In this document: positions 6,661 to 38,730 of the stretch, piece after piece | How positions within the stretch are numbered: position 1 is the stretch's first letter | Layout of the letters: each line of letters opens with the position of its first letter | Source of the DNA: Pseudomonadota bacterium | GTDB lineage: Bacteria; Pseudomonadota; Gammaproteobacteria; Burkholderiales; Burkholderiaceae_C | Assembly (NCBI GenBank): GCA_018240325.1 | Contig: JAFEFZ010000022.1 | Span: forward strand, 1-38,730 | DNA length: 38,730 nucleotides | Direction of reading: 5' to 3' | Notes under the pieces: model-generated | The model's database searches: none | Seen by the model: only the letters and a program-made list of their open reading frames with translations | What the model was told of the DNA's origin: nothing | Made by a program: the position numbers and the translations under genes

Positions 6661-8186
6661 GCGATCGCCTCCGGCTCGGCCTCGCCGACGTCGGCGAGGC
6701 TGCTCTGCTCGTGCCATCGTTTGTTCGTGTCGTTCAGCCCCTCCTCGACCGCCGTGAGCGCGACGTGCACGGGGATCCCCGGCCGCCCGCCGACCTTGAC
6801 GAGGAAGTTGCCCCGCCCCGGGGGAGCCGTCTCCTCGCCCGTCGCGTCATCCCAGGCCGGCGGATCGACCCAGCTGACGAGCATTTCCTGCTCGGCGCGG
6901 CTGAGACCGACGACGCGGCTGAGCTCGGGCATCTCACTCTCGGGCAGACCGCCACAGATCACCATCCCCGCGCGCTCCACGAAGCCCCGCGCCTTCATCC
7001 GGTCGTCCTCGTCGGGAAGGGCGTCCAGATCGGCCATCGTGTGACTGATCATGGCCTGCCCGACGCCGTGTTGGCGGTTGAGGCGCGTGAGCGCGTCGAC
7101 GCGGTCGACCATGCCGCGCCCACCGCGCAGGGCCCGCCATAGCTCGTCCAGGATCACGAAGTAGAGGCGTTGCGGCTCGAGGCCTGCGTCGGCGAGCGCG
7201 TGCGCGACGTTGATCGAGCCGAAGCCGGAGGACCAGCAGGCCATCAGGGCTGCACGCTGCAGCATTTCATCACCAGGATCGATCGAGCTGATGTCGAAGA
7301 CGACGGGCCGGTCGCGCCGCATCGGCGTCGTCGTCTCGGCGGAGAAGATCTCGCCGAGGCGACCCTGCCCGAGCATCGCCGTCAGCGACTTGATCAGCGG
7401 GTCGGTCGCGTCCTGGTAGCGGTCCATGTCGCCGCGGTCGAAGGTGATCTGGCGTACGTCGTCGGGCGCCTGCATCAGGACCTCGATCAGGTCGGGTAGG
7501 ACGGGTACGCCCTCGTGGCGATCGTCGAGCACGCCGATCGCCCGGTCGAGGATCAGCTCCTCATGGTCGGTCGGTGGCGCTGCCCGCAGCAGGGTCACGA
7601 GAGTCGCGACCATCGTGTGGCGGCGGCCTCGGGCGTCGGCGATCACCTGGGCGCGGGCGGAGCCCGTGAGGCGTTCGGCCGCCGCCGACGCCTCGCCGGG
7701 GTCCAGGATGTTCAGCCGACCGCGCCCACGCCCGAGTTCGATCACCTGGCCGCCGAGCCCGCGGATCAGATCGACGTAGTCGGGCTTGAGATCGCCGAGG
7801 ACCATCGGCAGCACCCCGTAGCCGGTGAGGCCGAGCCCCATCCGCCGGAGGACCGTGCTCTTACCGAGCCCCGGTCGCCCGAGGAGGAAGACCGAGGGGT
7901 TGGAGATCAGATGGGCCCGCTGAAACCACGAGATCGGGTCGGCGCAGAGCGTCGCGCCGGTGAGAAGGTTCCTTCCGATCGGCACGCCGATCATCGGCGA
8001 GCCCGAGCCCGCCGCGAACGGCCAGAGCCCGCACACCTGCACGGTGGTCCCCCGCCACTCCTCCGCCGCCTGGACGTAGACGGAGGACCCGGCCCCGCGG
8101 CCGCGCCAGCCACGCGCCGGCGCCGGTCGCGCCGGCGGCGTCTTCCTCGTCTTCTCCGCCTTCGCCTTCCGCCGGCGCCGGATCAA
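6657..8186 (-). CDS. VirB4-type conjugation ATPase
   Basis: A 509-residue soluble ATPase that energises the type IV secretion channel. Walker A GRPGLGKST is at about residues 103-111, a GDLKPDYVDLIRGLGGQ motif follows, and Walker B is YFVILDELWRAL. The later GQAMISHTMADLDAL segment corresponds to the VirB4 motif near the C-terminus. The N-terminal half of canonical VirB4 is missing here and appears to be carried by the preceding SCO6880-like gene, as in Streptomyces-type systems. The likely start is TTG 8186, overlapping the upstream stop as TTGA and preceded by GGGAG. It is coupled to the VirD4 gene downstream by ATGA. Confidence 0.9.
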   Translation of the reverse strand: MIRRRRKAKAEKTRKTPPARPAPARGWRGRGAGSSVYVQAAEEWRGTTVQVCGLWPFAAGSGSPMIGVPIGRNLLTGATLCADPISWFQRAHLISNPSVFLLGRPGLGKSTVLRRMGLGLTGYGVLPMVLGDLKPDYVDLIRGLGGQVIELGRGRGRLNILDPGEASAAAERLTGSARAQVIADARGRRHTMVATLVTLLRAAPPTDHEELILDRAIGVLDDRHEGVPVLPDLIEVLMQAPDDVRQITFDRGDMDRYQDATDPLIKSLTAMLGQGRLGEIFSAETTTPMRRDRPVVFDISSIDPGDEMLQRAALMACWSSGFGSINVAHALADAGLEPQRLYFVILDELWRALRGGRGMVDRVDALTRLNRQHGVGQAMISHTMADLDALPDEDDRMKARGFVERAGMVICGGLPESEMPELSRVVGLSRAEQEMLVSWVDPPAWDDATGEETAPPGRGNFLVKVGGRPGIPVHVALTAVEEGLNDTNKRWHEQSSLADVGEAEPEAIA

Positions 8187-9691
8187 AGCGACTCCCGCAG
8201 CTCGGAGGGCACCCGAAGGTGCGAGGGCAGGACGAGGCCAAGGGGCAGCGCGGCCGCGAACGCGCTGTCCTGCGAGCCGTAGACCGGGCGCAGCATGATC
8301 CGCGCCGTCGGTGCCAGGTGGTCGACCGCCTGGCGCGCGGCGTCGAGGCGATCGCGGTCGGTCACCGTGGCGGTCACCAGCATCCCGAAGTTGACGAGGC
8401 CGGCCCCGCGTGCCTCCTCCGCCGCCGTCGACGCCGCCGCGCGCTGCTCGACCAGCGCCCGCGCGGAGGGCCGGGTCGCCGAGTTGACCCGGAAGTCGGC
8501 GTTGCGCTTGTCCTGCTCGACGATGCGCGCCGCCCGCGCCGAGTCGACCGGGCGGTAGAGAATCGTCACGCGCTTGCGGTCGATGTCCCCATGCGGGCGC
8601 AGCAGCCGCTCGAGCACCCGCGACTGGACCTCGCCTCTCGGTGCCTGGCTCATCGACCAGGTGACCGACCAGGCATCGTCGTGGCGGTAGACGTCCCAGC
8701 CGGCCTCCGCCGCGGTCGGCCCGACGTCGCCCCAGTGAAGCTCGGGAACCGCGCCTTCGGCGCGGGCGTGGTCGAAGACCCGCGCCGAGCGCGGGTCGTA
8801 GGCGGTACGGACCAGCTCGCACAGCTGCTGGGCGGTCATCGGGCGCGCGGCGCCCGCGCCCGTGGCGTGGAGCGTCTGCGAGAGCCACGGCACCCGCGCC
8901 GCCAGATCGCGGGCCATGTCGTCCGCGTCTCGTCCGCGTGCGTACCCCCGCCCGGCGCCGGAGAAGGTCACCGCGACGATGGCCTTGACGGTCGCCGACC
9001 CCGCCGGGTAGGTCGCGACCGTCTCCTCGAGCATCGCCCGCGCGACCGCCGGAGCCTCGGGGTCGATGTTCGCCTCGACCTCGCTGCGTAGGCGCGAGCC
9101 GGTGTCGGGCGCCGTCTCGATCGTCACGGACGCGGCGACCACGCCGGGCTCGTCGCCCAGGGCGGCGAGCCACTGCCCCCAGTGGGCGACCCACAGGTCG
9201 ATCTGCTCCTCGTCCACCAGGGAGGCCCCGTCGGAGTCGGCGGAGAAGGCGACGGTGAAGTGCCCCGTCGAGGGCACACGCAGGAGGGCAAACGGTCGGT
9301 CGTAGGAGTCGCGGGCCTCGAGCAGCGTCGACCCCGCCGCCAGGCCGGGTAGCTGGAAGCGCCCCCACTCGACCCTCCCCAGCGGGCCTGAGCGGTAGAG
9401 GTGCGCCCCCGTCGCGCGGGCGCGCAGCCAACCGAGGCGGGTACCGATCGCCTGCAGGAGCGTCTTGCCGTGGCGGTTGCGGATCATCAGCGACGACAGC
9501 GCCGCGCCGAGGACCAGCGCAACGGCCACGGCCACGAGGATCCCGGCGAGCATCATCGTCAGGATCACGACGATCAATCCGGCCAGCAGCAGGCCGGTCC
9601 CGATCGTCCCGAGTGCCCCGAGTCCGGCGGACGCGGGCCGCCTCCAGTTGCCGTACGTCCGTGGTCCGCCTGATTCACCTACGGGCGCCAT
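8183..9691 (-). CDS. SCO6880-like membrane protein (PrgI/VirB4 N-terminal type)
   Basis: A 502-residue protein with two closely spaced N-terminal membrane segments (about residues 25-70, LGTIGTGLLLAGLIVVILT onward) and a large cytoplasmic domain. In Streptomyces-like conjugative elements this family is encoded immediately before the VirB4-like ATPase, as here. The membrane part resembles PrgI, and the soluble part is thought to match the N-terminal domain of VirB4. I see VYRHDDAWSVTWSMSQAPRG and RVTILYRPVDSARAARIVEQ but no P-loop. ATG 9691 has a good GGAGG site and overlaps the VirB6-like gene by 17 bases. Family assignment comes from memory of its layout. Confidence 0.78.
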   Translation of the reverse strand: MAPVGESGGPRTYGNWRRPASAGLGALGTIGTGLLLAGLIVVILTMMLAGILVAVAVALVLGAALSSLMIRNRHGKTLLQAIGTRLGWLRARATGAHLYRSGPLGRVEWGRFQLPGLAAGSTLLEARDSYDRPFALLRVPSTGHFTVAFSADSDGASLVDEEQIDLWVAHWGQWLAALGDEPGVVAASVTIETAPDTGSRLRSEVEANIDPEAPAVARAMLEETVATYPAGSATVKAIVAVTFSGAGRGYARGRDADDMARDLAARVPWLSQTLHATGAGAARPMTAQQLCELVRTAYDPRSARVFDHARAEGAVPELHWGDVGPTAAEAGWDVYRHDDAWSVTWSMSQAPRGEVQSRVLERLLRPHGDIDRKRVTILYRPVDSARAARIVEQDKRNADFRVNSATRPSARALVEQRAAASTAAEEARGAGLVNFGMLVTATVTDRDRLDAARQAVDHLAPTARIMLRPVYGSQDSAFAAALPLGLVLPSHLRVPSELRESL

Positions 9692-11171
9692 CGGGCCCTC
9701 CCTCCTGGTCGTCGTCCGCCGACGCCTCCTCGCGCAGTCTCCGTATCGCCCCCTGCCCCGCGCCGGCGGCTGCCGCGCCAGCGGCGGCGGGGCCCCCGCC
9801 GGCCGCAGCTGCGCCACCCGAGGCGCCGGAGGCACCGCCTTCCGCCGCAGCGCCTCCTCCGGTGCCGGCCGCGGGCGACCCGCCCGTCCCCTGGCCCCCG
9901 CCGGGTGATGCCGCAGCGCCAGCGCCGCCGGCGGTCGGAGCAGCGGCACGGTCGCCGCCCGAGGGACGGGCCTCCGTGCCGAGGCCCGATCCCTCACCGC
10001 CCGACCCGCCCGACCCGCCCGAACCGTTGCCCTCCGCGCCGTCCTGCCCGGCGGCGCCCGAGGCGCCACCCCCGGCAGGTGGACCGGAAGGCCCGCGTCC
10101 GCCTCCCGCTCCGGCCGCTCCGGTAGCTCCCGAGGGTCCGCCGCCGGCGGCGGCCCCTGCCCCTGCCCCTGCACCCGCCATCGCCGGCATCCGCCCCAGC
10201 GCCATCGCCCCGGTCGGGCCTGCGGCCGCAAGCATCGCAGCGGCACCCCCGACGCCGGCGCCCCCGCCGGAGGCGACGGCGCTGGTCATCGGGGCGAGGA
10301 AGCGCAGCAGCGCGGGCAGCGCGAAGATCGACATGATCATCAGCGCCAGCCCCACCAGCACCTTGAGCAGTCCGTCGTCTTCAAAGACGTCAGAACCGGC
10401 GAGTTTGAAGGCGGTCGCGTAGATGATCGCGGCGGCCGGCTTGTAGAGGATGAACGCAATCAGCCAGGTCGTGAAGCGACGGAACCACATGCGGCCGGCC
10501 TCCGTGCTCGTGAACGACGCGGCCAGCGGTAGCGCGCCGGTGAGAAGAACGAGCATCCCGGCCCGCACGACCATCAGCGCGATCTGCACGATCGAGACGA
10601 AGATCGCGATCAGGCCGAGCACGATGACGAGCATCGGCCCGAGCGTCCCCCCCGAGCTCGCCGAGGCGATGCCGAGCATCGCCGTGAGGTTCTGGCCAAA
10701 GTCGCCGCCCTGCGTCGACGCGTCGACGATGTGCGCGGCGAATTCGTCGGAGGCGGCGATCGCCAGGCTCACCACGGCCAGGCCGCAACCCGTGACGACG
10801 ACGAGCGTGAAGAGGCCCTTAAGGAGGTCGCGGCCCGGATCGGCCCGCTGCTCCCAGGCCATGCGTGCGCCGCCCAGGATCACCGCGAAGACGGCGGCCG
10901 CCGCCATGAACCACCAGAGTTCGGACTGAATGAAGGCGACCGGCGTCGACGCGGTCGTGCCGTCGGAAGTGGTGACGTTTGGCGTGCCGATCTTCACCCA
11001 CACCGTGCCGAGCGTGACGAGGATCTTCGACACGCCATCGGCGACCGCCGAGGCCAGGGCACCGACCGCCGTTTCGGCGACGGCCGATGCGGCGCCGCCG
11101 ACGACGTCGCCGGCGGCGTTCAGCGGGGCGGTGACGATTTCGCCCAGGCCCAGGGCGAGCGGCAGCCTCAT
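9675..11171 (-). CDS. VirB6/TrbL-like polytopic channel protein with Gly/Ala-rich tail
   Basis: About 498 residues. The first 320 contain several hydrophobic segments: ELWWFMAAAAVFAVILGGA, GLFTLVVVTGCGLAVVSLAI, MLVIVLGLIAIFVSIVQIAL, MLVLLTGALPLAASF, WLIAFILYKPAAAIIYATA and LLKVLVGLALMIMSIFALP. This is the topology of VirB6/TrbL proteins, the polytopic component of the inner-membrane channel. The remaining 180 residues are almost only Gly, Ala, Ser and Pro, a disordered tail common in actinobacterial homologues, ending in a charged RRLREEASADDDQEGG. Start ATG 11171 overlaps the upstream stop as ATGA; an ATG at 11183 lacks a ribosome site. Confidence 0.82.
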   Translation of the reverse strand: MRLPLALGLGEIVTAPLNAAGDVVGGAASAVAETAVGALASAVADGVSKILVTLGTVWVKIGTPNVTTSDGTTASTPVAFIQSELWWFMAAAAVFAVILGGARMAWEQRADPGRDLLKGLFTLVVVTGCGLAVVSLAIAASDEFAAHIVDASTQGGDFGQNLTAMLGIASASSGGTLGPMLVIVLGLIAIFVSIVQIALMVVRAGMLVLLTGALPLAASFTSTEAGRMWFRRFTTWLIAFILYKPAAAIIYATAFKLAGSDVFEDDGLLKVLVGLALMIMSIFALPALLRFLAPMTSAVASGGGAGVGGAAAMLAAAGPTGAMALGRMPAMAGAGAGAGAAAGGGPSGATGAAGAGGGRGPSGPPAGGGASGAAGQDGAEGNGSGGSGGSGGEGSGLGTEARPSGGDRAAAPTAGGAGAAASPGGGQGTGGSPAAGTGGGAAAEGGASGASGGAAAAGGGPAAAGAAAAGAGQGAIRRLREEASADDDQEGGPDGARR

Positions 11172-11920
11172 GGCGCGCCCCATTCGACGTAGCCGCTCAG
11201 GTCGTTGAGCTGCTTAACGTTGTAGGGGTCGGACCCGCATTCCGGGCTCTCGTTGAGGACGAACTTCCAGTCCCCGTCTTCCCATCGCATCGGCAGCGTC
11301 AAGGCGCGAAGGCCGGTGCGACCGTCGGATTCCGAGAGGAGTAGCGCCAGTTCCACCGTGACTTCGTCTTCCGTGCGCGCCGGGATGCGGAAGCCGGCCA
11401 GTTGGTGTCGACTGGCGGAAGGGCACCTTTCGTAAGGCTGGGCCTTCGCCTCTTCGAGCGCCGCGGTGTCGGCGAACAGGGGGAGCAGCGCCAGCTCTTC
11501 CTTTTCGCTGTTGGTGGCCAGGGCGGCGGCGAGGAAGTTCGTGGCGGCGAAAAGAGCGCCGGTGGGCGAGTGCGCGTAGCAGCTGCGAACCCCTCCGCTC
11601 GTCCGGCCTGGCCCCGCCTGGCCGCTCGGTGCCGCGAGCTGGCCGATCAGGACCCAGTGTGCGGCGGGCGGCGTCACCGGGACGCGCTGGTCGCCTGCCG
11701 GTAGGCCGCATACGCTGGCGGCGGGATCCCCGGTCGACGTGGTAGTCGACGTCGTCGCCGGGCCCGACGACGACGTTTCGTCGTGCCCGCCTCCGTCGCC
11801 GGTGGCGAGGAGCACCACCGCGGCGGCCGCCAGCACGAGCACCAGTCCGGCCGCGATCACCCAGCCGCGCTCTGAGAACGGGCTCGGCGAATCGCCGCTT
11901 CCTTCCGGCCGCTCCGCCAT
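11168..11920 (-). CDS. Bitopic membrane protein of the transfer operon
   Basis: A 250-residue protein with a short cytoplasmic N-terminus, one membrane helix (about residues 20-41, WVIAAGLVLVLAAAAVVLL) and a Ser/Thr/Pro linker. The extracellular domain contains APSGQAGPGRTSGGVRSCYA, HSPTGALFAATNFLAAALAT and MRWEDGDWKFVLNE. The HSPTGALFAATN stretch is a recurrent motif of uncharacterised proteins in actinobacterial conjugative elements, possibly the family named DUF8175. The fold may resemble VirB8/NTF2-like assembly factors, but that is inference. Start ATG 11920 follows a very strong GGAGGAGG site. Cysteines at the domain edges could form a disulfide. Confidence 0.75.
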   Translation of the reverse strand: MAERPEGSGDSPSPFSERGWVIAAGLVLVLAAAAVVLLATGDGGGHDETSSSGPATTSTTTSTGDPAASVCGLPAGDQRVPVTPPAAHWVLIGQLAAPSGQAGPGRTSGGVRSCYAHSPTGALFAATNFLAAALATNSEKEELALLPLFADTAALEEAKAQPYERCPSASRHQLAGFRIPARTEDEVTVELALLLSESDGRTGLRALTLPMRWEDGDWKFVLNESPECGSDPYNVKQLNDLSGYVEWGAP

Positions 11921-11947
11921 CGGCTCCTCCTCCTCTCCTGCGCCCGC

Positions 11948-12226
11948 TCAGACCAGCGCGCCCACCATCCCCGACGCGGCTCCGATCACGATGCAGCCGG
12001 CGAAGACCCAGCCGAGCCGGGCGGCGTGCTCGCCGCCGGAGCCGTGGCGGTGCTGCAGGGCCATCCCCGCCCCGGCGATGATCACGCCCAGGACGCAGAC
12101 GCCGAAGGCCACCCAGGCGGCCCATTGCAGGATCGTCGTGAACTTGTCGGCGCCGGGCGGCGGATTCCCCTGGCCGGGGTTCGGGACCGCCGCCGTGTAT
12201 AGCAGCGTGGCGAGTTGATCAAACAC
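11948..12226 (-). CDS. VirB2-like small membrane protein
   Basis: Ninety-two residues with two membrane helices, about 35-57 (QWAAWVAFGVCVLGVIIAGA) and 69-91 (GWVFAGCIVIGAASGMVGAL), joined by a short basic loop with HRHG. Size, the two-helix hairpin and the position upstream of the VirB6-like gene fit VirB2/TrbC-type pilin-like subunits of gram-positive systems. There is no clear signal peptidase site, so it may act as a membrane component rather than a surface pilus. GTG 12226 has a strong GGAGGGAG site and overlaps the upstream DUF6668 gene by eight bases. Confidence 0.72.
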   Translation of the reverse strand: MFDQLATLLYTAAVPNPGQGNPPPGADKFTTILQWAAWVAFGVCVLGVIIAGAGMALQHRHGSGGEHAARLGWVFAGCIVIGAASGMVGALV

Positions 12227-12953
12227 GTGCCTCTCCCTCCTGTCGGTGACTTGTCGATGCGTCGAGCCTGACCGCCGCCGGCACGGGCAGGAGCCCGTCC
12301 ACGGCGGTCAGCAAGTTGCGGACTGCGCCCGGCGCCGTCCGGGCGTCCACCCCCTCGCCGAGGCGCCATGCCTCGCACCAGGGGACGCGCCAGGTGGCGG
12401 GAACGCCTCCTTCCACCAGCTCGGCGAGGTAGCGCAGGGCACGTGGCGCGCGCCCCGGGGCGTCGGCGACCAGGACCAGGCCGATCAGGCTCACGGGGAT
12501 CTCGCCGCTGGCCCATTCGGCGGCGGCCGCCTGTGCGGCGCGCAGGCCGCGGGCGTCGGTGCGGGCGACCAGAGCCACGAAGGGCGCCGCGGGGCCGCGG
12601 CGCACGCCTGGGCGGATCGGCCAGGCATGGTCGGCGGCGCGCGAGGCGGGGAGCAGCTGCTCGAGCGTCGTCTCCCCCGCCCCTCCGTGCACTCCCACCC
12701 ACCACAGCCGCGGCGCCGCGGCGTCGTTGATCGTCAGCTGTGGGAGTCGCCTCGAGCTGGGCGGTGGAGCGACTGCCCCCGGCTGCGGTGCCGCCGGCGT
12801 CCGCGGAGCCTCAGGCTCGGCGGGGACCGCCTCGACGCGGGGCTCCGCGTCGGCCGCCGGGGGCGGATCGACCCACGGGTTCGAGGGACGGTTACGCCCT
12901 CCAGACCCGTCCCCTCGCTGCCGGTCAGGCGGCCTTTTCCCGATTCCCCACAT
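12219..12953 (-). CDS. DUF6668-like protein with degenerate P-loop
   Basis: A 244-residue protein. After a Pro-rich disordered N-terminus (to about residue 75) comes LWWVGVHGGAGETTLEQLLP, a MinD/ParA-type Walker A in which the catalytic lysine is replaced by glutamate (GGAGETT, residues 90-96). FVALVARTDARGLRAAQAAA and VSLIGLVLVADAPGRAP continue the Rossmann-like fold. This is the pattern of DUF6668 proteins in Streptomyces-type conjugative elements. Without the lysine it should not hydrolyse ATP normally and may be a structural or regulatory partner of the MinD-like ATPase encoded divergently. ATG 12953 has no clear ribosome site and opens the transfer operon. Confidence 0.8.
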   Translation of the reverse strand: MWGIGKRPPDRQRGDGSGGRNRPSNPWVDPPPAADAEPRVEAVPAEPEAPRTPAAPQPGAVAPPPSSRRLPQLTINDAAAPRLWWVGVHGGAGETTLEQLLPASRAADHAWPIRPGVRRGPAAPFVALVARTDARGLRAAQAAAAEWASGEIPVSLIGLVLVADAPGRAPRALRYLAELVEGGVPATWRVPWCEAWRLGEGVDARTAPGAVRNLLTAVDGLLPVPAAVRLDASTSHRQEGEARV

Positions 12954-17395: not shown

Positions 17396-17609
17396 CGGCC
17401 GGCGTCGCCCCTATGTCGGTGCCCGCGAGTCCCTTCTGCGCCCCCAGGCTGCCCGACCGCCTGTCAGCCGCCACAGCGGCTACCCGCGTCGGCTGCGCCG
17501 CCGTGAAGCGCTACGCGCCGGGCACGCCGCTGCGTGCATTGCCAGGTCGGCCGGGCTTCGCCGGGTCTTGCAGGAACCCACGAACACCAACCCAGAGGAG
17601 ACATCGAGC

Positions 17610-29855: not shown

Positions 29856-30272
29856 ATGAATGCCGACGACATCCGCACTTACAGTGGCCTGCGGCTGCTT
29901 CCCGCCGCCGTGATTCTCCTGAACGTCGACCAGGATGCCGGGGCGCGCCGATGGGTGACGATTGAACCGGTGGAGCGCGCCGGTTCCGGCGGGCGCACCT
30001 GGATGGAGGACGAGGTCACCGTCAACTGGACTCGCCTGGAGGACCCGCGGCGGTCCAGCACCGCGCTCCGGCTGACGGCCTTCGCCCGCTCGATGCTCGA
30101 CGGGACGCCGGTCGACGTTCGAGAGATAGATCACTTCCCTCACGACGCCTACGCACTCTTCATGCGCGCGCTCGCGACCGCCTGGCCGGACCCCCCACCG
30201 TCGATCGACCAGTTGCTCGCGTCGGGATGGCGCGAGCTGACGGCGGACGAGTTTCGGAGACGAATCGAATGA
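29856..30272 (+). CDS. Hypothetical protein between mobC and the relaxase
   Basis: A 138-residue protein starting directly after the mobC stop and overlapping the relaxase start as ATGA, so it is co-translated with the mobilisation genes. It begins beta-rich (LRLLPAAVILLNVDQDAGAR, WVTIEPVERAG), then helical (STALRLTAFARSMLDGT, HDAYALFMRALATAWPDP). No metal or nucleotide motif is visible. A role in the relaxosome or in oriT control is inferred from position only. I do not recognise a family. Confidence 0.7.
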   Translation: MNADDIRTYSGLRLLPAAVILLNVDQDAGARRWVTIEPVERAGSGGRTWMEDEVTVNWTRLEDPRRSSTALRLTAFARSMLDGTPVDVREIDHFPHDAYALFMRALATAWPDPPPSIDQLLASGWRELTADEFRRRIE

Positions 30273-31849
30273 TCCCGAACATCACGCGGGGGGGACGGAT
30301 GGTCGGCTTGATGCAATACCTCGCCGGCCCGGGTCGCACCAACGAGCACGCCGAGCCGCACTTGATCACCGCCGACCCGGCGGTGATGGCGTGGCATGAC
30401 GACGCCGAACTCGACCGCGCGACGGCGACGGCGATCGCGCGGGAGCTCGACCATCCCCGTCGCGCCTTCGGCACCCGCGTCACGACCGCCGTGAAGGACG
30501 GTGAGGGTCGGCGGCGCGGGCGGCGCGACGCGCACGTATGGCACTGCTCCTTGAACCTGGCGGCCGAGGAGGGCCAGCTGCCCGACGAGTGTTGGGCGCG
30601 GATCTCCGAGGACTTCATCGAGGCGATGGGCTTCGGAGGCGAGGCGCCCTGTCGTTGGGCCGCGGTGAGACACGGCCTCTCGAAGGCCGGGAACGACCAC
30701 GTTCACCTTGTCGTCTCCCTCGTCCGCGAGGACGGCACCAAGGCGAACGTCTGGAATGACCGACCGCGGGCCCAGAAGGTGTGCGGCGAGCTCGAGCGGC
30801 GCTACGGCCTCCAGGTGTTGGAGTCGCGGGCGGCAGGGCGGGGGGGAGCGCGCGGCCACAAGCCCGCGGAGCAGGCTGTGGCCGCGCGGCGCGGTACCCC
30901 TGACAACGCACGCGAACGCCTGGAGCGCATCGTCCGCGCGGCCGCCGCCGCGGCCGGCGACGAGGCCGAGTTCGTCCGTCGTGTGCGGCGCTCAGGGGTG
31001 CGCCTGCGGCCGCGCTACGCGGCCGACCGCGACGACGTTGTCGCCGGTTATTCGGCCGCGCTGCGGGCGCCGAGCGGCCAGTCCCCCGTCTGGTACGGCG
31101 GGGGCCACCTGGCCCGCGACCTGACCTTGCCGCGCCTGCGATCGGGTTGGCCGGACACGCCCGAGGCGGCGGGTGACGCGGTGTCGGAGTGGCAGGCGGC
31201 GCGCCGCGGCCGGCGCGTCGTCGCGCCCGGGCGCGAGCAACACGAGCCGGATCCGAAACTTTGGAAGCGCTACGCGCAGGAGGTCGGCGAGCTGCGCGAG
31301 CAGCTGCGCTCGGTGCCGCCCGAGGACCGGGCGACCTGGGCGCACGTCGCCCGCGAGACGGCCGGCGCCTTCGCCGCCTGGTCGGTGGCGGTCGAGCCCG
31401 AGCCGGGGCCGCTCGCGGCGACGGCCTCGCAGCTGGCGCGCAGCGCACAGCTACATGCCCACCAGGTACGTCCCCCACGGCCCGGCCTGCCGTCGCTCGG
31501 CGGCGTCGCCCTCCTGGTCGCCTCCGCCGGGCGCGGAGGTCGCGGCCCGGTCGGTGAGCTCGCGCTGCTGCGCCAGCTCGCCAACACCGCGCAGGCCCTC
31601 CACGACGCGCACGCCGCGGCGGGCGAGGCGCGCACCGCCCAGCGGCTCGCCAGCGTGGTGCGCGGCCAGCTGCAGGCGGTCGCCGGCGAGCTGCGCCCGC
31701 CTGGCTCCGGGCAGGAGGAGACCGGGCCGGGTGTCGATCCGCGCGCGCCCGGCAGTCCACTTCCACGGTCGTTGCCCGAGCGCGGCTCCGCCGCCACGAC
31801 GCCGCGGGCGCGGCCGCCGTCGACCCCCAACCGCGGCGTCGAGCGCTGA
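30269..31849 (+). CDS. MOBP-type relaxase
   Basis: A 526-residue DNA-nicking relaxase. The start MIPNITRGGRMVGLMQYLAG, PGRTNEH is the N-terminal signature of actinobacterial MOBP relaxases, with Tyr17 the likely nucleophile. Motif III is NDHVHLVVSLVREDG (His144, His146), metal-binding, with His92 in the HVWHCSLNL strand. Residues 210-526 are helical and basic, including WYGGGHLARDLTLPRLRSGW, a segment usual in these long relaxases. ATG 30269 overlaps the upstream stop. With MobC and VirD4 it starts plasmid transfer. No helicase or primase is fused; SSB and Prim-Pol are encoded separately. Confidence 0.92.
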   Translation: MIPNITRGGRMVGLMQYLAGPGRTNEHAEPHLITADPAVMAWHDDAELDRATATAIARELDHPRRAFGTRVTTAVKDGEGRRRGRRDAHVWHCSLNLAAEEGQLPDECWARISEDFIEAMGFGGEAPCRWAAVRHGLSKAGNDHVHLVVSLVREDGTKANVWNDRPRAQKVCGELERRYGLQVLESRAAGRGGARGHKPAEQAVAARRGTPDNARERLERIVRAAAAAAGDEAEFVRRVRRSGVRLRPRYAADRDDVVAGYSAALRAPSGQSPVWYGGGHLARDLTLPRLRSGWPDTPEAAGDAVSEWQAARRGRRVVAPGREQHEPDPKLWKRYAQEVGELREQLRSVPPEDRATWAHVARETAGAFAAWSVAVEPEPGPLAATASQLARSAQLHAHQVRPPRPGLPSLGGVALLVASAGRGGRGPVGELALLRQLANTAQALHDAHAAAGEARTAQRLASVVRGQLQAVAGELRPPGSGQEETGPGVDPRAPGSPLPRSLPERGSAATTPRARPPSTPNRGVER

Positions 31850-33075: not shown

Positions 33076-34308
33076 GTGCGCCGGCTGCTGCTGCTGAACG
33101 GACTTATCTTCCTCGAGGTCCTCTTCTTCACGGTTCTCGCGCCCCTGCTCCCTGATCTCGCCGCGCGCCTGGGTCTCAGCGACGCCGAGCTCGGCGTCCT
33201 GTCCGGTGCCTACGCCTGGGGATCGGTCTTCGCGGCGTTCCCCGCCGCCTTTCTCGCGCAGCGCTTCGGCCCGCGCCCCGTCGCCGCCGCCGGTCTGATC
33301 GCCCTCTCGATCGCGAGCCTGCTTCTCGGCTGGGGCGAACATGTCGCCCTCCTCGACGCCGCCCGATTCGCTCAGGGGATCTCCGGAGCCGTCGTCTGGG
33401 GTGCCGCGATGACCTGGCTCCTGGCCACCGCGCCCACCGAACAAAGAGGCGCCATGATCGGCACATCCGTCGCGGCAGGAGCGGCGGGCGGCATCGTCGG
33501 GCCGATCATGGGGGCGACGGCCAGCGTCCTCGGAACCCGATGGGTCTTCACCGCTTCGCTGGGCCTGACGTTGCCGTTGCTCCTCGCAGTCCTCCTGGCC
33601 AGGGGGACGCCTCGTCTGGAGCACCAGCCCGTCCGTGCGGTCCTCGCCACACTCGCGAGCCGCCAGATCGGCGCCGCCGCCGCATTCCTCTCCGTCCCCG
33701 CGCTCGCCTTCGGCGCACTCTTGGTTCTCGTCCCGTTGAAGATCCACCAGCTCGGCGGCAGCGCCAGCCTGATCGCCGGTGTCTTCGTCGGCGCTGCGAT
33801 CATCGAGATGGCGGGCGCGCCCCTGTCGGGCCGTCTCTCGGACTCCGTCGGGAGGCAACCCCTGTACGTCCTCGGACTCCTCCTCTACGCGATCTCCGTC
33901 GTCGTGATGGCGGCGGCGGGTTCCCTCGGCCTCCTGACCGCGGCCTTTCTCGGAGGGTCGGTCGGGTGCGGGCTGTTCATCACGCCCGCGCTCGCCTCGC
34001 TCTCCGACGTCGCCGAGCGCTCTCACCTCGCCCAGAGCCACGCCATGGCCTTGTCCAACACCACGTTCGTGCTCGGCCTCGCTCTGGGCGCCGTGGTGGG
34101 GGGTGTCGTCGCCAGCGTCGGCGGCAACGACACCGCCTACCTGGTCATGGCCGCCCTGGTCTTCGTCGTTGCAGGGTGGGGCAGCCGCGCGTCGCTGCCC
34201 CGCCCCTTGATTCCGACGCAGCGCCCGTACCCCCTCAGTCGAAGGGTGGGGCGCCGCCGGCACGCGAAGGCGCGCCCGGCACCATCGGACCGACCTATGG
34301 CCCGCTGA
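33076..34308 (+). CDS. MFS transporter, DHA1-like
   Basis: A 410-residue protein with about 12 membrane helices. The first half begins LLLLNGLIFLEVLFFTVLAP and carries the loop LPDLAARLGLSDAELGVL before GAYAWGSVFAAFPAAFLAQR. The motif FGPRPVAAAGL corresponds to the MFS loop 2-3 signature, GISGAVVWGAAMTWLLATAP is helix 4, and GRLSDSVGRQPLYVLGLLL is the repeat in the second half. The family usually exports drugs or small metabolites by proton antiport; the substrate is unknown. GTG 33076 follows a GGAAGG site. The gene is monocistronic and its end overlaps the convergent surface-protein gene by 14 bases. Confidence 0.9.
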   Translation: MRRLLLLNGLIFLEVLFFTVLAPLLPDLAARLGLSDAELGVLSGAYAWGSVFAAFPAAFLAQRFGPRPVAAAGLIALSIASLLLGWGEHVALLDAARFAQGISGAVVWGAAMTWLLATAPTEQRGAMIGTSVAAGAAGGIVGPIMGATASVLGTRWVFTASLGLTLPLLLAVLLARGTPRLEHQPVRAVLATLASRQIGAAAAFLSVPALAFGALLVLVPLKIHQLGGSASLIAGVFVGAAIIEMAGAPLSGRLSDSVGRQPLYVLGLLLYAISVVVMAAAGSLGLLTAAFLGGSVGCGLFITPALASLSDVAERSHLAQSHAMALSNTTFVLGLALGAVVGGVVASVGGNDTAYLVMAALVFVVAGWGSRASLPRPLIPTQRPYPLSRRVGRRRHAKARPAPSDRPMAR

Positions 34309-35431
34309 CGACCGAGATCGTCAAGGTGCTTGTGTAGGTGCCGGAAAAGCTGTTCTGCGGGACCGCCACGGTGACCGTGGGAGTGACCGTGAAGAGTCCT
34401 TTGCCGGTCGCGGCCGCGGCGTTGAAAAGCTTGACCGCAGTCGGCGGCCCGGCGCCGGCGGGGACCGCGACCGGATAGGTGATCGAGTTCGTCGGTTCGG
34501 TGCAGAGGCCCCCGTTGGCACACGCCTTCGCGACGGCGGTGATCTTCGAAGCTTCGCTCGACAGCGTTTTGGTGCCGTTCGTGAACTGGGTCGAGGTGAC
34601 GGTCAGGTTCCAGCCGAGGCCGGCGCTGCCGCCGGTCCGCGTGTCGTTGAGGGTCAGCGGGGCGGTGTACGTTGGTTCCTGGTCGCCGCTGTCGAGGTTC
34701 GCCGAGAAGGTCGGTGCGGCGCTCGTCGCCACCGCGAGGCTCGCCTGTCCCGCTTCGCGGAGCGCGATCGTCTGCGCGATCCAGGCCGCGGTGGTGATCA
34801 GCGGGACCGCCGTCTTCGCCGTCGTGGTGCCCGCGGTCGGCTGGGCGAAGTCGGCCGCCTCGCTGGTGGTGGCGGAGGTGGAGGACTTGTCGTAGCGCTC
34901 CGTCGTGCCGGTGTTCGGGGTTACCGTCGTCGCCGTGGCGAAGGAGACCGCCACCACGACCTGGTCCGCGGGAAGCGAGGTCGTCAGCGCAGGGGCGACG
35001 GCGTTGCCGCTGGTGCCACTCGCGCTCGCCGTCGCGTCGATCGGCACCGTCTGGTTCACCCCCCTGTAGTCGATGATCCCGCCGGAGGCCAGGCGCCTCG
35101 TCCCGAGTTTGAACGAGTAGCTGGTCGCCTCGCTCGCGGTCGCGACCTTGTAGAAGGTCACCTGGCGGATCGAGGTTCCCTGGGTCGTGTCCTTGACGAC
35201 CGTCCAGCCGCTCGGTGGGGTCAGGGCCCCGCTTCCGGTCGCGCTCACGGTGGCGATCATCACGTCGCCTTCGGCGACCCCGGTCGGCTTGGTGATCGCC
35301 AGCGTGGTCGACGCCCTGGTCCTCCCGGCGCTCGTGGCCGCGACGAAGCTGATCGCGCCCTGCGAGCTGGCCGGGAGAAGCAGCGCCGCCGCGAGGATCG
35401 TCAGCGCGGCGGCTTGCCGGAGGCGGCGCAT
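34295..35431 (-). CDS. Secreted protein with C-terminal WxL-like domain
   Basis: A 378-residue protein with a signal peptide (residues 1 to about 25, AALTILAAALLLPASSQGA). The N-terminal domain (about 25-225) has GVAEGDVMIATVSATGSGAL, TPPSGWTVVKDT and SGGIIDYRGVNQTVPIDAT, a beta-sandwich seen in secreted proteins of Solirubrobacterales. A C-terminal domain of about 140 residues (SAAPTFSANLDSGDQEPTYT to GTYTSTLTISVVSGP) closely resembles the protein at 36514. It has the beta pattern and YxxTLT-xxxP end of WxL domains, which bind the cell wall. ATG 35431 has GGAGGG upstream. It is the last gene of the surface operon. Confidence 0.75.
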   Translation of the reverse strand: MRRLRQAAALTILAAALLLPASSQGAISFVAATSAGRTRASTTLAITKPTGVAEGDVMIATVSATGSGALTPPSGWTVVKDTTQGTSIRQVTFYKVATASEATSYSFKLGTRRLASGGIIDYRGVNQTVPIDATASASGTSGNAVAPALTTSLPADQVVVAVSFATATTVTPNTGTTERYDKSSTSATTSEAADFAQPTAGTTTAKTAVPLITTAAWIAQTIALREAGQASLAVATSAAPTFSANLDSGDQEPTYTAPLTLNDTRTGGSAGLGWNLTVTSTQFTNGTKTLSSEASKITAVAKACANGGLCTEPTNSITYPVAVPAGAGPPTAVKLFNAAAATGKGLFTVTPTVTVAVPQNSFSGTYTSTLTISVVSGP

Positions 35432-35451
35432 CACTCGACCCTCCACCCGGG

Positions 35452-36501
35452 CTAGACGACGCCCCGGTGGCGGAGGAAGAAGAAGCTCGCCGCGCCGATC
35501 GAGAGGGCCGAGACCCCCACCAGGGCGACGACGAGGGCGGAGTCAGAGGAGCCCCCGCCCCCGGGGTCTCCGGGTGCGGGGGGGGACGCGGTCGAGCCGA
35601 ACACCTGCTTGACCTGACTTGAGGTGATCTTGAACGGGAAGGTCCGGCGGGCGGTCTTGCCCCGATAGTGGACCGTCACCGTGCCCCGGTAGCTGCCCGG
35701 GGGAAGGGCCTTGCCCTGGACGTAGACCGGGAATTCGATCTCGGATTCCGGGACGAAGGTGTCCAGGGCGAATTCCTGGCGTTGGACCTGCCTGCCTCCG
35801 GCGTTGACGACGCGCAGCGTGCCGCTGCCCTTGGTCAGCACGTTGCCGGCATTCTCGATCCCTAGCAGGAGCGCCTGGTGGCCGGGGGTGCCGCCGGGCT
35901 TGATCCCGGTCAGGTTCATCGCAGCGCGCCGGGTCCCGGGCACGTCGACCTGAACGGCCAGCACCGAGAGTGCGTGGATCTTGACCTTGAAGCCGCCTTC
36001 TTCGCCTTCCCCTCCGCCGCCGGAGGGCGGCTGCACCGTCTTAGTGAAGCGCTGGGTGACGAGCCCGCCGAGGTACTGGCCGGGAGGCGTTCCTTCCGGA
36101 ATCCGCACGCTGAAGGAGACGACCTGCGATTCCCCCCCTTCCATCGTGAGCGCGTTCTTGCCGAGCTTGATCCAGCGCCCGACGCCGCGTCTCGGGGCTC
36201 CACGGGAGAGGTAGACGGCGCCGCTGGTCTGCCCCGTCGTCGCGTCGACCGCGTAGAGCCGCGTCGATCCCGCGCCTCCGCCGGCGTTGGTGACGAGCAC
36301 CTTGGCGCGCAGGGTTTCTCCCGGCTTGCCGCTGAGGACGAAGTAGCCGCTTTCGGTGGCGGGTTCGGGCTTAAGCGAGAAGGTCGGCCCGGCGGCGGCG
36401 GCGCTCCCCGGCGGCAGGATCAGGGCGATAGCGGCGGCGAGGACGCAGAGTGCGACCGCCCGACCCCGGATGCCTCCCGCCGGGCTATCCACCGATGCCA
36501 A
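35452..36501 (-). CDS. DUF916/WxLIP-like membrane-anchored surface protein
   Basis: A 349-residue protein with a signal peptide (about residues 14-37), a large extracellular part and a C-terminal membrane helix (about 325-345, VVALVGVSALSIGAASFFFL) with an RHR stop anchor. FSLKPEPATESGYFVLSGKP, then LRAKVLVTNAGGG and WIKLGKNALTMEGGESQVVS match the WxL-interacting-protein DUF916 fold. The second domain is Ig-like (LTGIKPGGTPGHQALLLGIE). In Firmicutes this family displays WxL-domain proteins on peptidoglycan. Here it sits between two WxL-like genes, 21 and 12 bases from its neighbours. The start is TTG 36501 or GTG 36492. Confidence 0.8.
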   Translation of the reverse strand: MASVDSPAGGIRGRAVALCVLAAAIALILPPGSAAAAGPTFSLKPEPATESGYFVLSGKPGETLRAKVLVTNAGGGAGSTRLYAVDATTGQTSGAVYLSRGAPRRGVGRWIKLGKNALTMEGGESQVVSFSVRIPEGTPPGQYLGGLVTQRFTKTVQPPSGGGGEGEEGGFKVKIHALSVLAVQVDVPGTRRAAMNLTGIKPGGTPGHQALLLGIENAGNVLTKGSGTLRVVNAGGRQVQRQEFALDTFVPESEIEFPVYVQGKALPPGSYRGTVTVHYRGKTARRTFPFKITSSQVKQVFGSTASPPAPGDPGGGGSSDSALVVALVGVSALSIGAASFFFLRHRGVV

Positions 36502-36513
36502 GGGCCGTCGCCC

Positions 36514-37065
36514 CTACGGGCCGCTGACGATCGAGATCGTCAGCGTCGAGGTGTAGGTGCCCGCGGTGCTGCTCTGCGGCACGAACACCCCGATCGTCGG
36601 CGTGTTGGTGAATTTGCCGAGGCCGGTGTTGGCGGCGGCGTTGAAGAATTTGACCGCGGTCGGCGCCGTCGGCGCGGCGGGCACCGCGACCGGATAGGTG
36701 ATCGCGTTGGTCGGCAGCGTGCAGGTCCCGCCGGCGCAGACGTTGGTGACGCCGGTGATGGTGGAGGCATTGGTCGCGAGCAGGCTGGGGGTGGCGCCGC
36801 CGGTGGTGAACTGGGTCGAGGTGATCGTCGCGTTCCAGCCGGCGCCGGTGCCACGGGTGTCCTGGATCGTCAGCGGCACCGTGTAGGTCGGCGTCGAGTC
36901 GCCCAGATCGAGGTTGGCCGAGAAGCTCGGGGTGGCGCTGGTCGAGAGGCTGAGGGTGCTGCCGGTCAGAGTGCCGGTCACGTTGGCGGTGGCGCCGAGC
37001 GCCATCGCCGGGAGGACGAGCATGGCCGCAAGGGCCAAGAAGATCGGGGGGATGGTGCGTCTCAA
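36514..37065 (-). CDS. Secreted WxL-like domain protein
   Basis: A 183-residue protein: signal peptide (about residues 1-25, PPIFLALAAMLVLPAMALG), then a single domain with ATPSFSANLDLGDSTPTYTV, TGAGWNATITSTQFTTGG, CAGGTCTLPTNAITYPVAVP and GTYTSTLTISIVSGP at the very end. It is nearly a stand-alone copy of the C-terminal domain of the protein at 34295. The end pattern resembles the second WxL motif of Firmicutes surface proteins, with ISI in place of WTL. Two cysteines (CAGGTC) may bridge. The likely start is TTG 37065 with GAAGGG upstream. First gene of the three-gene operon. Confidence 0.75.
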   Translation of the reverse strand: MRRTIPPIFLALAAMLVLPAMALGATANVTGTLTGSTLSLSTSATPSFSANLDLGDSTPTYTVPLTIQDTRGTGAGWNATITSTQFTTGGATPSLLATNASTITGVTNVCAGGTCTLPTNAITYPVAVPAAPTAPTAVKFFNAAANTGLGKFTNTPTIGVFVPQSSTAGTYTSTLTISIVSGP

Positions 37066-37356
37066 GGGAATGCCCTTCTGCCGGGAGTAGAAGTTTGATT
37101 TCCGTGTGTTATCGGCAGCTCCTCCATCGTGATTTATCGGTAGGACGGAAAAATCTCCCCGAGTGATCCAGGGAATTCTGGTGATGGAACCAGCCGGAGT
37201 GGTGGATTGCTGCACGGCGCTCTCGTCCAGGCTCGCTCTAAACAGGCGTATGAGTTTCGACATCCAGGGTCAGGTAACGGGGCTTACTACCGAAAACTGA
37301 TGAGCGGCCCGCGTCCCGCCGGCCGGCGACCCAGAGCAGCATCAAAGGAGCCAGCT
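37066..37356. promoter_or_regulatory. Divergent promoter region of the surface-protein genes
   Basis: The gap between the divergent surface operon (minus) and secreted-protein gene (plus). TTATCGGCAG (37109-37118) and TTATCGGTAG (37134-37143) are direct repeats with a 25-bp period, upstream of the minus-strand operon. They could be binding sites of a shared regulator. AT content is higher than average around 37085-37160. No gene or riboswitch I can name is here. Confidence 0.45.
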
Positions 37357-38403
37357 GTGACCAGACCCCTCAAAAACCCACTGCGGTGGGTGCTCGCGGC
37401 AGGAGCGCTCACCCTCCTATTCCTCGGCGTAGCAGCCGGGTCCGCCCGCGCCGCCACCTACGGGGCCGCCGGCTTCAGCAGCAGCGCCGAAGGCTGGAAG
37501 GTGACGAGCTCGACCTGCAGCATCCCGCTGGCCCTCGCCTGCGCATCGAGCGGCGAATACGCGACCACGGCCGGCAATCCGCCCGGCTCGCTCGCGACGA
37601 AAGGCACCGTCCTCGTCAACGTCGTCGGCCTCTTCAAGGCAGACACGACCTTGGAATCGCCGAGCTTCACCGTCGGCGAAGGGGGCCAGGGCACGCTCGA
37701 GATGCAGCGGGCGTTCGACCCGGGCGGCCTCGTCGAACTGAATCCGCAGCTCTCCTACACGGCGATCCTGGTGGATCAGACCAGCGGCCAACAGCAGAAG
37801 GCGATCGCCGAAACCTTCAGCGGCTCCTCGGACTTCGCAGACAGATCAGGCCCCGTCAGCCTCGTCGCCGGCCACAGCTACGCGATCGTGGTCGAATCGC
37901 AGATCAGCGCCACCCTGGTCGGCGTCGGCCTGATCGGATCCTCGATTGCCAACTTCGACAACGTCTCGGTCACCGGCCCCGGAGGGGCCGGGGGTGGAGG
38001 TGGCAACGGCGGTGGCGGAACCGGCGGGAACGGCGGAGAAGGGAGCCCCGGTGCCAACGGCCTTACCGACGCGCGCCTCGCGAGCATCCTCAAGTCGAGC
38101 GGGGGCGCCGTCTCGGCCGCCAGGGCGCAAAGTGGCAGGCTCCTGGTCAAGGCCAAGTGCCCGAAGAAGGTGGGGGTCGCCTGCCGAGTCACCCTGCAGG
38201 GCCTGCTCAGCAAGAAGAAGCCGGCGACGGCGCCCCGCACCGTGAAGATCCAGAAAGGGAAGAGCAAGCTGGTCGCGCTCAAGTTGAAGCCGAAGGCGAA
38301 GGGCGCGGTCACCAAACGCAAGAAGCTCCTCTTCAAGGAGACGGTGAAGGCCGGCAGCGCCACCGCGACGCTCTACAGGCCGCTGAAGTTGATCCGGCGT
38401 TAG
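37357..38403 (+). CDS. Secreted Gly-rich surface protein
   Basis: A 348-residue protein with a signal peptide (about residues 8-32, WVLAAGALTLLFLGVAAGSA, RA|A). A beta-rich domain (about 33-205, ATYGAAGFSSSAEGWKVTSS, VSLVAGHSYAIVVESQ, ANFDNVSVTGPGG) resembles carbohydrate-binding sandwich modules. A Gly/Asn spacer (about 208-230) follows. The C-terminal basic domain has KAKCPKKVGVACRVTLQGLL and many lysines, a type common in secreted proteins of Solirubrobacterales and possibly wall-binding. GTG 37357 has AAAGGAG upstream. It is divergent from the WxL operon and probably belongs to the same surface structure. Confidence 0.78.
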   Translation: MTRPLKNPLRWVLAAGALTLLFLGVAAGSARAATYGAAGFSSSAEGWKVTSSTCSIPLALACASSGEYATTAGNPPGSLATKGTVLVNVVGLFKADTTLESPSFTVGEGGQGTLEMQRAFDPGGLVELNPQLSYTAILVDQTSGQQQKAIAETFSGSSDFADRSGPVSLVAGHSYAIVVESQISATLVGVGLIGSSIANFDNVSVTGPGGAGGGGGNGGGGTGGNGGEGSPGANGLTDARLASILKSSGGAVSAARAQSGRLLVKAKCPKKVGVACRVTLQGLLSKKKPATAPRTVKIQKGKSKLVALKLKPKAKGAVTKRKKLLFKETVKAGSATATLYRPLKLIRR

Positions 38404-38606: not shown

Positions 38607-38730
38607 GCGCAAGACCGTATGGAGAACCGACCGACCCCGACGGTAGGTAGGTCGGCACCCCGCGCATGACGTTGCGGGGACTGGGCCGCAGGATCACCCT
38701 GCGGCCGTCACCCCGATCATGGGAGGTGCC
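38607..38730. repeat. Terminal direct repeat (right copy)
   Basis: Identical to bases 1-124. It includes the three hairpins and the first bases of the transposase frame. Annotate it once in the circular molecule. Confidence 0.9.

What the first reader, a model, noticed from the sequence alone, without database searches (positions are those of the whole stretch)
34295..37065. Plasmid-borne WxL/WxLIP-like surface display operon in an actinobacterium
Two secreted proteins share a C-terminal domain ending in GTYTSTLTIS-VVSGP or its ISIVSGP variant. Between them lies a DUF916-type protein with signal peptide and C-terminal membrane anchor. In Firmicutes, WxL proteins are held on peptidoglycan together with WxLIP (DUF916) proteins. 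Here a compact version is carried as cargo on a conjugative plasmid of a high-GC host. It could alter adhesion, mating-pair contact or surface exclusion in carriers. The WxL motif itself is not conserved, so it may be a divergent class.
Basis: partly seen in the sequence, partly recalled or inferred. Interest (0 to 1): 0.8.

Follow-up and report, generated by a model that had tools for sequence, protein, structure and literature searches.

The report
Plasmid-borne WxL surface-display gene cluster
A circular plasmid, probably from an actinobacterium, carries a three-gene set that appears to build a cell-surface protein platform known mainly from lactic acid bacteria and their relatives, and related sets turn up on the genomes of uncultured actinobacteria.

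Summary
Three tightly packed minus-strand genes encode a small secreted protein matching Pfam WxL (34.4 bits, cut-off 25), a membrane-anchored protein with both WxLIP domains, and a larger secreted protein whose C-terminal domain is 64% identical to the small one: the minimal Firmicute WxL cluster. The WxLIP model's best solved-structure match is E. faecium WxLIP (E 1.1e-13). The contig is a complete circular 38,606-bp plasmid whose transfer genes run as in conjugative Arthrobacter plasmids. It sits in a Gram-negative bin, very probably by misbinning: cargo, backbone and composition look actinobacterial. Relatives occur in Actinomycetota MAGs; 21 of 249 genomes of one class have a strong WxLIP match. 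"WxL motif not conserved" is half right: the first Trp is kept in 12 of 12, the second in 0 of 12, inside an intact distal frame. The large protein's N-terminal domain recurs in actinophage tail-region proteins, hinting at an envelope-binding adhesin. Wall binding and adhesion are untested; the large protein's model was too poor to test its fold. A new, mobile, actinobacterial variant of a known kind.

The parts
36514..37065 (-). small WxL protein (183 aa; signal-like sequence plus WxL domain), TTG start behind AGAAGGG
   Evidence: PF13731 WxL E 2.9e-8, 34.4 bits vs cut-off 25; closest relative L031 of a Solirubrobacterales MAG; start and SD read
35452..36501 (-). WxLIP protein: signal-like sequence, PGBD (DUF916), HBD (DUF3324), C-terminal hydrophobic helix
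   Evidence: PF11797 33.7 bits (cut-off 28.9), PF06030 27.0 bits (cut-off 27.3) and 29.3 bits; Foldseek best hit 9i1y_A, E. faecium WxLIP, E 1.1e-13
34295..35446 (-). large WxL protein: signal-like sequence, N-terminal ~205-aa domain, C-terminal WxL domain; probable start ATG 35431
   Evidence: C-terminal domain 64% identical to the small WxL; no Pfam match over cut-off of its own; N-domain shared with L033 large WxL; start and SD read
34739..35359 (-). N-terminal displayed domain of the large protein (approximate bounds)
   Evidence: matches in 8 actinophage records (two of them the same phage), at best E 1e-5 over about 40% of the query; in ORFs beside WxLIP genes of L033, L048, L057, L061, L062 and in 4 of 5 fetched phage loci
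1..124 (.). left copy of the terminal repeat: contig ends overlap, so the molecule is circular (38,606 bp)
   Evidence: identical to 38607-38730; L032 crosses the junction at 99.97%
38607..38730 (.). right copy of the terminal repeat
37207..38403 (+). divergent neighbour: secreted-looking protein with a lysine-rich C-terminal tail; possible part of the surface cassette (inference)
   Evidence: no Pfam match at E <= 1, no match in the plasmid collection at E <= 0.01
4403..12953 (-). type IV secretion block: DUF4913, coupling protein (4873-6717), ATP/GTP-binding protein, SCO6880-like protein, three further proteins, DUF6668
   Evidence: Pfam; same order and 37-58% identity in three Arthrobacter/Pseudarthrobacter plasmids typed conjugative
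30227..31849 (+). relaxase
   Evidence: PF03432 E 3.3e-13; 51-58% identity to the 12 best-listed plasmid relaxases, of Arthrobacter and related genera

Best explanation
The operon encodes a WxL surface complex of the Firmicute kind in an actinobacterial variant. All three proteins are exported. The WxLIP stays in the membrane by its C-terminal helix, and its two Ig-like domains reach into the wall, where PGBD holds the WxL domains. The small WxL coats or binds the wall and helps to seat the large WxL, whose C-terminal WxL domain holds it there while its N-terminal beta-rich domain faces outward as an adhesin, probably for a glycan or envelope surface of neighbouring cells or particles. The genes ride on a 38.6-kb conjugative-type plasmid that probably took them from a Solirubrobacterales-like chromosome. 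Shown here: gene content, order, families, circular plasmid, transfer-gene synteny, related clusters in actinobacterial MAGs. Inferred from Firmicute work: wall binding and WxL-WxLIP contact. Inferred only: adhesion, its target, and the route of acquisition.
For: Family matches in the order of the known minimal cluster (cluster content from PMC9772566 section 3.3 and PMC10599100 section 2.2). WxLIP model against solved WxLIP 9i1y and 9i25 (the latter titled WxLIP bound to long WxL), ranks 1-3, E 1.1e-13 to 2.5e-12. Proximal Trp 12 of 12; Asp at W-8 9 of 12 and Arg at W-6 4 of 12, the pair named in a passage of PMC9772566. Distal frame Y-xxx-phi-T-phi-x-phi-xxx-P: Y, T and P 12 of 12, against the published YXXX(L/I/V)TWXLXXXP (PMC5817068 passage). 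Same linkage in L033, L036, L037, and a WxL-profile hit within about 1.5 kb of the WxLIP hit in 18 of 27 sampled loci at E < 0.01, 16 of 27 at E < 1e-5 (no shuffled control was run). dN/dS about 0.19 for the small WxL domain against L031. N-domain shared with phage tail-region proteins.
Against: The large protein's WxL domain has no Pfam match of its own, and its model is poor with no fold hit at E <= 0.001. Distal Trp 0 of 12 and third residue of the first motif Leu in only 3 of 12, so wall binding by the known motif cannot be assumed. PF06030 sits at its threshold. PF11797 is met by 2 of 5 aligned WxLIPs at E <= 0.01. 9 of 27 sampled loci showed no WxL hit within the short flanks. L035's small WxL has no WxLIP gene in its 12-kb stretch, and no WxLIP was found in the assembly of the nearest relative L031, whose contig ends behind the small WxL gene. 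The WxLIP model is of middling confidence (pLDDT 66.9, pTM 0.47), and 388 PDB chains match it at E <= 0.001, since Ig-like folds are widespread. No binding or expression data exist here.
Confidence: 0.8

Rival explanations
1. The proteins share ancestry with WxL/WxLIP but do not bind the wall: WxLIP acts as an assembly chaperone for a fibre built of small WxL subunits, and the large WxL is its tip.
For: Foldseek also lists fimbrial chaperones (CfaA, DraB) below WxLIP. Two small WxL genes in tandem occur in L033, L036, L037. Loss of the distal Trp.
Against: Chaperone hits are weaker (best E 8.7e-9, TM-score 0.27-0.34 by query length) than WxLIP (E 1.1e-13 to 2.5e-12, 0.54-0.55 by query length), and a peptidase fibril entry ranks above them. 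A membrane anchor is unusual for such a chaperone (recalled knowledge).
Confidence: 0.1
2. The cluster is a mating-pair or surface-exclusion device of the plasmid: the displayed domain binds the envelope of recipients or blocks redundant mating.
For: It lies on a conjugative-type plasmid. Its N-domain recurs in tail-region proteins of phages of Rhodococcus, Gordonia and Mycobacterium, parts that meet the cell envelope.
Against: It is separated from the transfer block and relaxase by other genes, related clusters lie beside housekeeping-type genes (by eye), and no WxL or DUF916 gene is annotated in the three Arthrobacter-type plasmid stretches examined, one whole and two partial.
Confidence: 0.15
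3. The plasmid truly lives in the Gram-negative host in whose bin it was placed.
For: The contig is in G000, and a fragment of the same plasmid is in a second bin titled Proteobacteria. G000's phylum has a few weak DUF916-type relatives: with P0002 as query G087 (25% identity, E 2.0e-7) and G272 (25%, E 1.4e-4), and with PF06030 G379 under the cut-off (E 3.7e-4).
Against: G000 has LpxC. PF06030 was found in 0 of the 60 other genomes, and PF13731 in 0 of the 397 other genomes. The backbone's tetranucleotide profile is nearer to four actinobacterial MAG contigs (mean 0.848) than to eight contigs of G000 (0.732). The best-listed plasmid relatives of coupling protein and relaxase are actinobacterial, at 56-58% and 51-58% identity.
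Confidence: 0.06

Closest known systems
WxL gene clusters of Lactobacillales and Bacillales (PMC9772566, PMC10599100; E. faecium locus A, PDB 9i1y and 9i25)
   Same: one small WxL, one WxLIP with PGBD, HBD and C-terminal helix, one large WxL; all secreted-looking; WxL domain C-terminal; WxLIP fold
   Different: distal WxL Trp replaced by Ile; a Cys pair 4-6 residues apart in 11 of 12 aligned domains (its absence in Firmicutes is recalled, not tested); different displayed domain; high-GC, probably actinobacterial host; on a conjugative-type plasmid
WxL/WxLIP clusters in Actinomycetota MAGs (L033, L036, L037 and class relatives)
   Same: same families, tandem small WxL then WxLIP, large WxL with the same N-domain in L033
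   Different: two small WxL genes, or two WxLIP genes in L033; housekeeping-type surroundings by eye; the WxL domain of L033's large protein lies in another subclade
DUF916 loci on Cellulosimicrobium pCPRO01 and a Streptomyces plasmid
   Same: DUF916 protein beside a secreted-looking protein with a WxL-like C-terminus; profile E 0.0028 for the Streptomyces one, by eye only for Cellulosimicrobium
   Different: distant: 32-34% identity over about a third of P0002; displayed parts are LamG, glycoside-hydrolase or ricin-type by annotation and by eye; 13 of the 14 records with a match are typed non-mobilizable

Membership tests
[quoted passage not shown]
   definition in PMC10599100 section 2.2; the large WxL is counted through its 64% identity to the small one
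WxLIP | PGBD (PF06030) followed by HBD (PF11797) and a C-terminal transmembrane helix | tested here: met
   PF11797 over cut-off; PF06030 27.0 vs 27.3, 29.3; helix 321-345 at low confidence, hydrophobic by eye
WxLIP | WxLIP fold | tested here: met
   Foldseek ranks 1-3 are E. faecium WxLIP chains; model pLDDT 66.9
WxL domain (PF13731) | profile match over the curated cut-off | tested here: met
   small protein 34.4 vs 25 bits; the large protein has no match of its own and is linked through the small one
WxL domain (PF13731) | first WxL motif (Trp, then Leu two residues on) | tested here: inconclusive
   Trp 12 of 12; third residue Leu in 3 of 12, otherwise Val 4, Ala 3, Ile 1, Thr 1; window: WNA small, WNL large
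WxL domain (PF13731) | distal WxL motif YXXX(L/I/V)TWXLXXXP | tested here: not met
   Y, T, P kept in 12 of 12 but Trp 0 of 12 and Leu 1 of 12 at their places; W-x-L two residues earlier in L047 and L050, W-x-F in L048, L049 and L033's large protein
WxL domain (PF13731) | WxL fold | tested here: inconclusive
   model of the large protein pLDDT 56, no fold hit at E <= 0.001; the small protein was not modelled on its own
WxL domain (PF13731) | C-terminal end of a secreted protein | tested here: met
   export judged by eye
WxL domain (PF13731) | non-covalent peptidoglycan binding | not testable with these tools
   needs protein; reported for Firmicutes (PMC5817068 passage)
Conjugative plasmid of the Arthrobacter MOBP/MPF_T type | relaxase, coupling protein and T4SS genes in conserved order | tested here: met
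   typing of the relatives by MOB-suite as given
Conjugative plasmid of the Arthrobacter MOBP/MPF_T type | self-transfer | not testable with these tools
   no experiment

The most novel reading that the evidence does not exclude
A mobile WxL platform on an actinobacterial conjugative plasmid displays a domain shared with phage tail proteins so that carriers grip the envelope of other actinobacteria, making the WxL system part of the plasmid's own spread; and the actinobacterial WxL domain holds the wall without the paired Trp platform, by a rearranged distal strand and a cystine loop.
Probability: 0.12. Interest if true: 0.75.

Novelty: new variant of a known kind. Interest (0 to 1): 0.52.

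Why it matters
WxL systems have been described as largely a Bacilli trait tied to gut commensals (over 91% of 938 WxL sequences in Firmicutes, PMC9772566 section 3.2). Here the complete module is on a conjugative-type plasmid that is probably actinobacterial, and strong WxLIP relatives are in 21 of 249 genomes of one class of Actinomycetota MAGs. That separates the module from gut adhesion, offers natural variants lacking the distal Trp with which to ask what the WxL motif is for, and suggests that a surface-display platform with an exchangeable outer domain can move between cells.

Tried and rejected
PDB sequence searches with single proteins found nothing useful; with the WxL alignment only weak murein-endopeptidase-type hits (best E 0.032); with the WxLIP alignment E. 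faecium WxLIP at E 0.018, not significant by itself. NCBIfam (E <= 1) and PHROGs (E <= 0.1) gave nothing for the proteins tried. Two viral-contig scans confirmed no relative. P0003, the large protein's N-domain and P0004 have no match in the plasmid collection. The 16S search of the bin found none. Promoter scan: none; terminators 3 found, 1.8 expected. The fold search for the large protein gave no match at E <= 0.001 and its hits are not used. The searches in G000's own relatives and phylum say nothing about Actinomycetota, because that bin has LpxC; they serve only for the host question. The 36 of 57 genomes whose best match is weaker than E 1e-20 may hold other Ig-like proteins and are not counted as WxLIP. 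The Deinococcus plasmid locus was set aside: no WxL-type C-terminus was evident in the four proteins translated. The Cohnella locus was set aside without translating its neighbours.

Rows and limits of the counts: no row of the 12-row alignment was dropped before the counts, but Asp and Arg were counted at fixed distance, so the window's large protein, with a 3-residue insert, counts as a miss. The composition test used 8 stretches of 5 kb or more out of 20 fetched from G000, and 4 of 6 actinobacterial MAG contigs. In one search, against the whole window, 14 G000 stretches gave 0.67-0.77 (four more had no readable bases), L033-L036 gave 0.83-0.87, and the two contigs left out, L031 and L037, gave 0.75 each, no better than G000; L032, a 3.7-kb piece of the plasmid itself, also gave only 0.76, so short contigs tell little. 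The tree holds the 12 domains plus 8 further hits that I chose.
Full report
1. What is there. Three minus-strand genes at 37065-34295 are packed with gaps of 12 and 5 bases. Gene 1 (183 aa) is a signal-like sequence plus a WxL domain, PF13731 at 34.4 bits against a cut-off of 25. Gene 2 (349 aa) matches PF11797 WxLIP_HBD (33.7 bits, cut-off 28.9) and PF06030 WxLIP_PGBD; the latter scores 27.0 bits in hmmscan, just under its cut-off of 27.3, and 29.3 bits in the genome search. Gene 3 (383 aa) has no Pfam match of its own, but its C-terminal part is identical to gene 1's protein at 97 of 152 aligned positions (E 3e-56). Shine-Dalgarno-like AGAAGGG and GGAGGG precede TTG 37065 and ATG 35431 (read).

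2. Fold. The AlphaFold2 model of gene 2's protein (five-row alignment, mean pLDDT 66.9) finds E. faecium WxLIP at Foldseek ranks 1-3 among PDB chains: 9i1y_A E 1.1e-13, 9i25_C E 1.9e-12 (titled WxLIP bound to long WxL), 9i1y_B E 2.5e-12; 388 chains in all reach E <= 0.001, since the fold is Ig-like. The model of gene 3's protein is poor (pLDDT 56) and gave no match at E <= 0.001, so the WxL assignment rests on sequence profiles, not on a model.

3. The WxL motifs. In twelve aligned domains, the window's two included, the first Trp is present in 12 of 12, Asp eight residues before it in 9 of 12 and Arg six before in 4 of 12; a passage of PMC9772566 names this Asp-Arg pair. The published distal motif is YXXX(L/I/V)TWXLXXXP (PMC5817068, passage). 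Here Y, T and P of that frame are kept in 12 of 12, the Trp in 0 of 12 (Ile in both window proteins), the Leu in 1 of 12. In L033's large protein, and in more distant relatives, a Trp stands two residues earlier: W-x-L in L047 and L050, W-x-F in L033, L048 and L049. Positions two apart lie on the same face of a strand, so part of the hydrophobic platform may have moved rather than vanished; that is inference. Eleven of 12 have two Cys 4-6 residues apart, a possible disulfide loop.

4. The carrier. The contig's first and last 124 bases are identical. A 3,691-base contig from another bin (L032, JAFEDF010000092.1) matches the circularised sequence end to end at 99.97%, across the junction. The molecule is therefore a circle of 38,606 bp. 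It has ParA and ParB, a primase-polymerase domain, an IS110 element, relaxase, coupling protein, DUF4913, DUF6668 and an M23 peptidase. The block DUF4913 - coupling protein - ATP/GTP-binding protein - SCO6880 - three further proteins - DUF6668 has the same order, at 37-58% identity, in Arthrobacter FB24 plasmid 2 (with three other genes inserted), pA48BH1 and pASPHE302, all typed conjugative, MOBP, MPF_T.

5. The host. The window's assembly has LpxC, so the bin is Gram-negative. None of the 60 other genomes has PF06030, and none of the other 397 genomes drawn from its phylum has PF13731; weak DUF916-type relatives exist there (G087 and G272 at 25% identity; G379 under the cut-off). One scan of genome contigs with the WxL alignment gave seven loci: five in four MAGs titled Actinomycetota, Actinobacteria or actinobacterium, one in Solirubrobacterales, and one that is the plasmid itself in a second bin titled Proteobacteria. 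The coupling protein's best-listed plasmid relatives are Arthrobacter-type at 56-58%; a match as close, 56%, is in one of 199 genomes of the class of L033's genome. Tetranucleotide correlation of the backbone is 0.848 with four actinobacterial MAG contigs, 0.732 with eight contigs of the bin and 0.706 with three Arthrobacter-type plasmid stretches; for the operon alone 0.642, 0.487 and 0.596. Two further actinobacterial contigs, L031 and L037, were left out there and had done no better than the bin's contigs (0.75 each against the whole window). In a tree the small WxL pairs with the Solirubrobacterales sequence (support 0.90), the large one beside them (0.93). Misbinning of a plasmid from a Solirubrobacterales-like host is the simplest reading; that two bins of Gram-negative type hold pieces of it is noted against.

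6. Relatives. L033 carries small WxL, small WxL, WxLIP, WxLIP, large WxL; L036 small, small, WxLIP; L037 small, small, WxLIP. L035 has a small WxL without a WxLIP in its stretch, and L031's assembly gave no WxLIP, its contig ending behind the small WxL. A search of 249 genomes of the class of L033's genome (G454) with the WxLIP alignment gives 57 with E <= 0.001 and, by my count of the table, 21 with E < 1e-20, three of these being sources of the alignment. That this class is Thermoleophilia is my inference and was not told by a tool. Of the 27 sampled loci L045-L071, with about 1.5 kb or less on each side, 18 have a WxL-profile hit at E < 0.01 and 16 at E < 1e-5; no shuffled control was run. 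More distant DUF916 loci with WxL-like partners occur on Cellulosimicrobium and Streptomyces plasmids.

7. The displayed domain. The N-terminal part of the large protein has no family name in Pfam or PHROGs. It aligns with the same part of L033's large protein, with ORFs beside WxLIP in L048, L057, L061 and L062, and with proteins of eight actinophage records, two of them the same phage (tblastn, best E 1e-5, 27-43% of the query). Of five phage loci fetched, three hits lie in proteins directly after the tape-measure gene (annotated minor tail protein in two, hypothetical in one), and two in hypothetical proteins near a minor tail protein gene; the two-sequence profile confirms four of the five. 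A module shared by wall-displayed proteins and tail-region proteins fits a role in binding envelope glycans; this is inference. In the tree the plasmid large protein's WxL domain groups with small WxLs and not with L033's large one, which suggests exchange or homogenisation inside the operon.

8. Mechanism and status. The best reading is a WxL surface complex: WxLIP anchors in the membrane and holds WxL domains at the wall, the large WxL shows its N-domain outward. Order and families are shown by sequence, export by eye; wall binding and complex formation are taken from Firmicute work (PMC10599100 abstract, passages and section 2.2; PMC5817068 passages); the adhesin role and its target are inference. 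Full-text searches for WxL with Thermoleophilia (one paper, each word once, not opened), WxL domain with Solirubrobacter (none), WxL domain with Actinobacteria (seven listed) and WxL with DUF916 (13 listed) showed, by titles, starts of abstracts and the parts read, no paper about such clusters. Of the papers listed I opened PMC10599100, PMC9772566, PMC5817068 and PMC12537917, each in part. The library is partial.

9. Verdict. It is a new, mobile, actinobacterial variant of a known kind.

Noticed in passing
window 1-124 and 38607-38730: Identical ends: the window is a complete circular plasmid of 38,606 bp, binned with a Gram-negative genome; a second bin holds another piece of it (L032).
   Followed up: yes
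window 37207-38403: Divergent secreted-looking protein with a glycine-rich linker and a lysine-rich tail, no Pfam or plasmid match; may belong to the surface cassette.
   Followed up: partly
window 33076-34308: MFS transporter gene converges on the operon and overlaps the 3' end of the large WxL gene by 14 bases.
   Followed up: no
window 17291-17325 and 17694-17728: Inverted repeat of 35 bases, 89% complementary, 368 bases apart, around part of a small ORF (17568-17969); could be a small mobile element or regulatory site.
   Followed up: no
L033:10934-11569: In L033 the WxL cluster is followed by a secreted-looking protein and a gene that looks like a TadE/TadG-type pilus protein (by eye, no profile run).
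   Followed up: no
L009:1-5858 (Cohnella herbarum plasmid): A DUF916 gene lies about 4.7 kb from a gene annotated TadA, again a DUF916 protein near Tad-type genes.
   Followed up: no
window 34294-34514 and 36513-36733: The WxL domain of the large protein groups with the plasmid's small WxL rather than with L033's large WxL, hinting at exchange within the operon.
   Followed up: partly
L072 (G617:C1:450770-452512): A coupling protein 56% identical to the plasmid's lies on a 3.6-Mb genome of the class of L033's genome, perhaps an integrated conjugative element.
   Followed up: no
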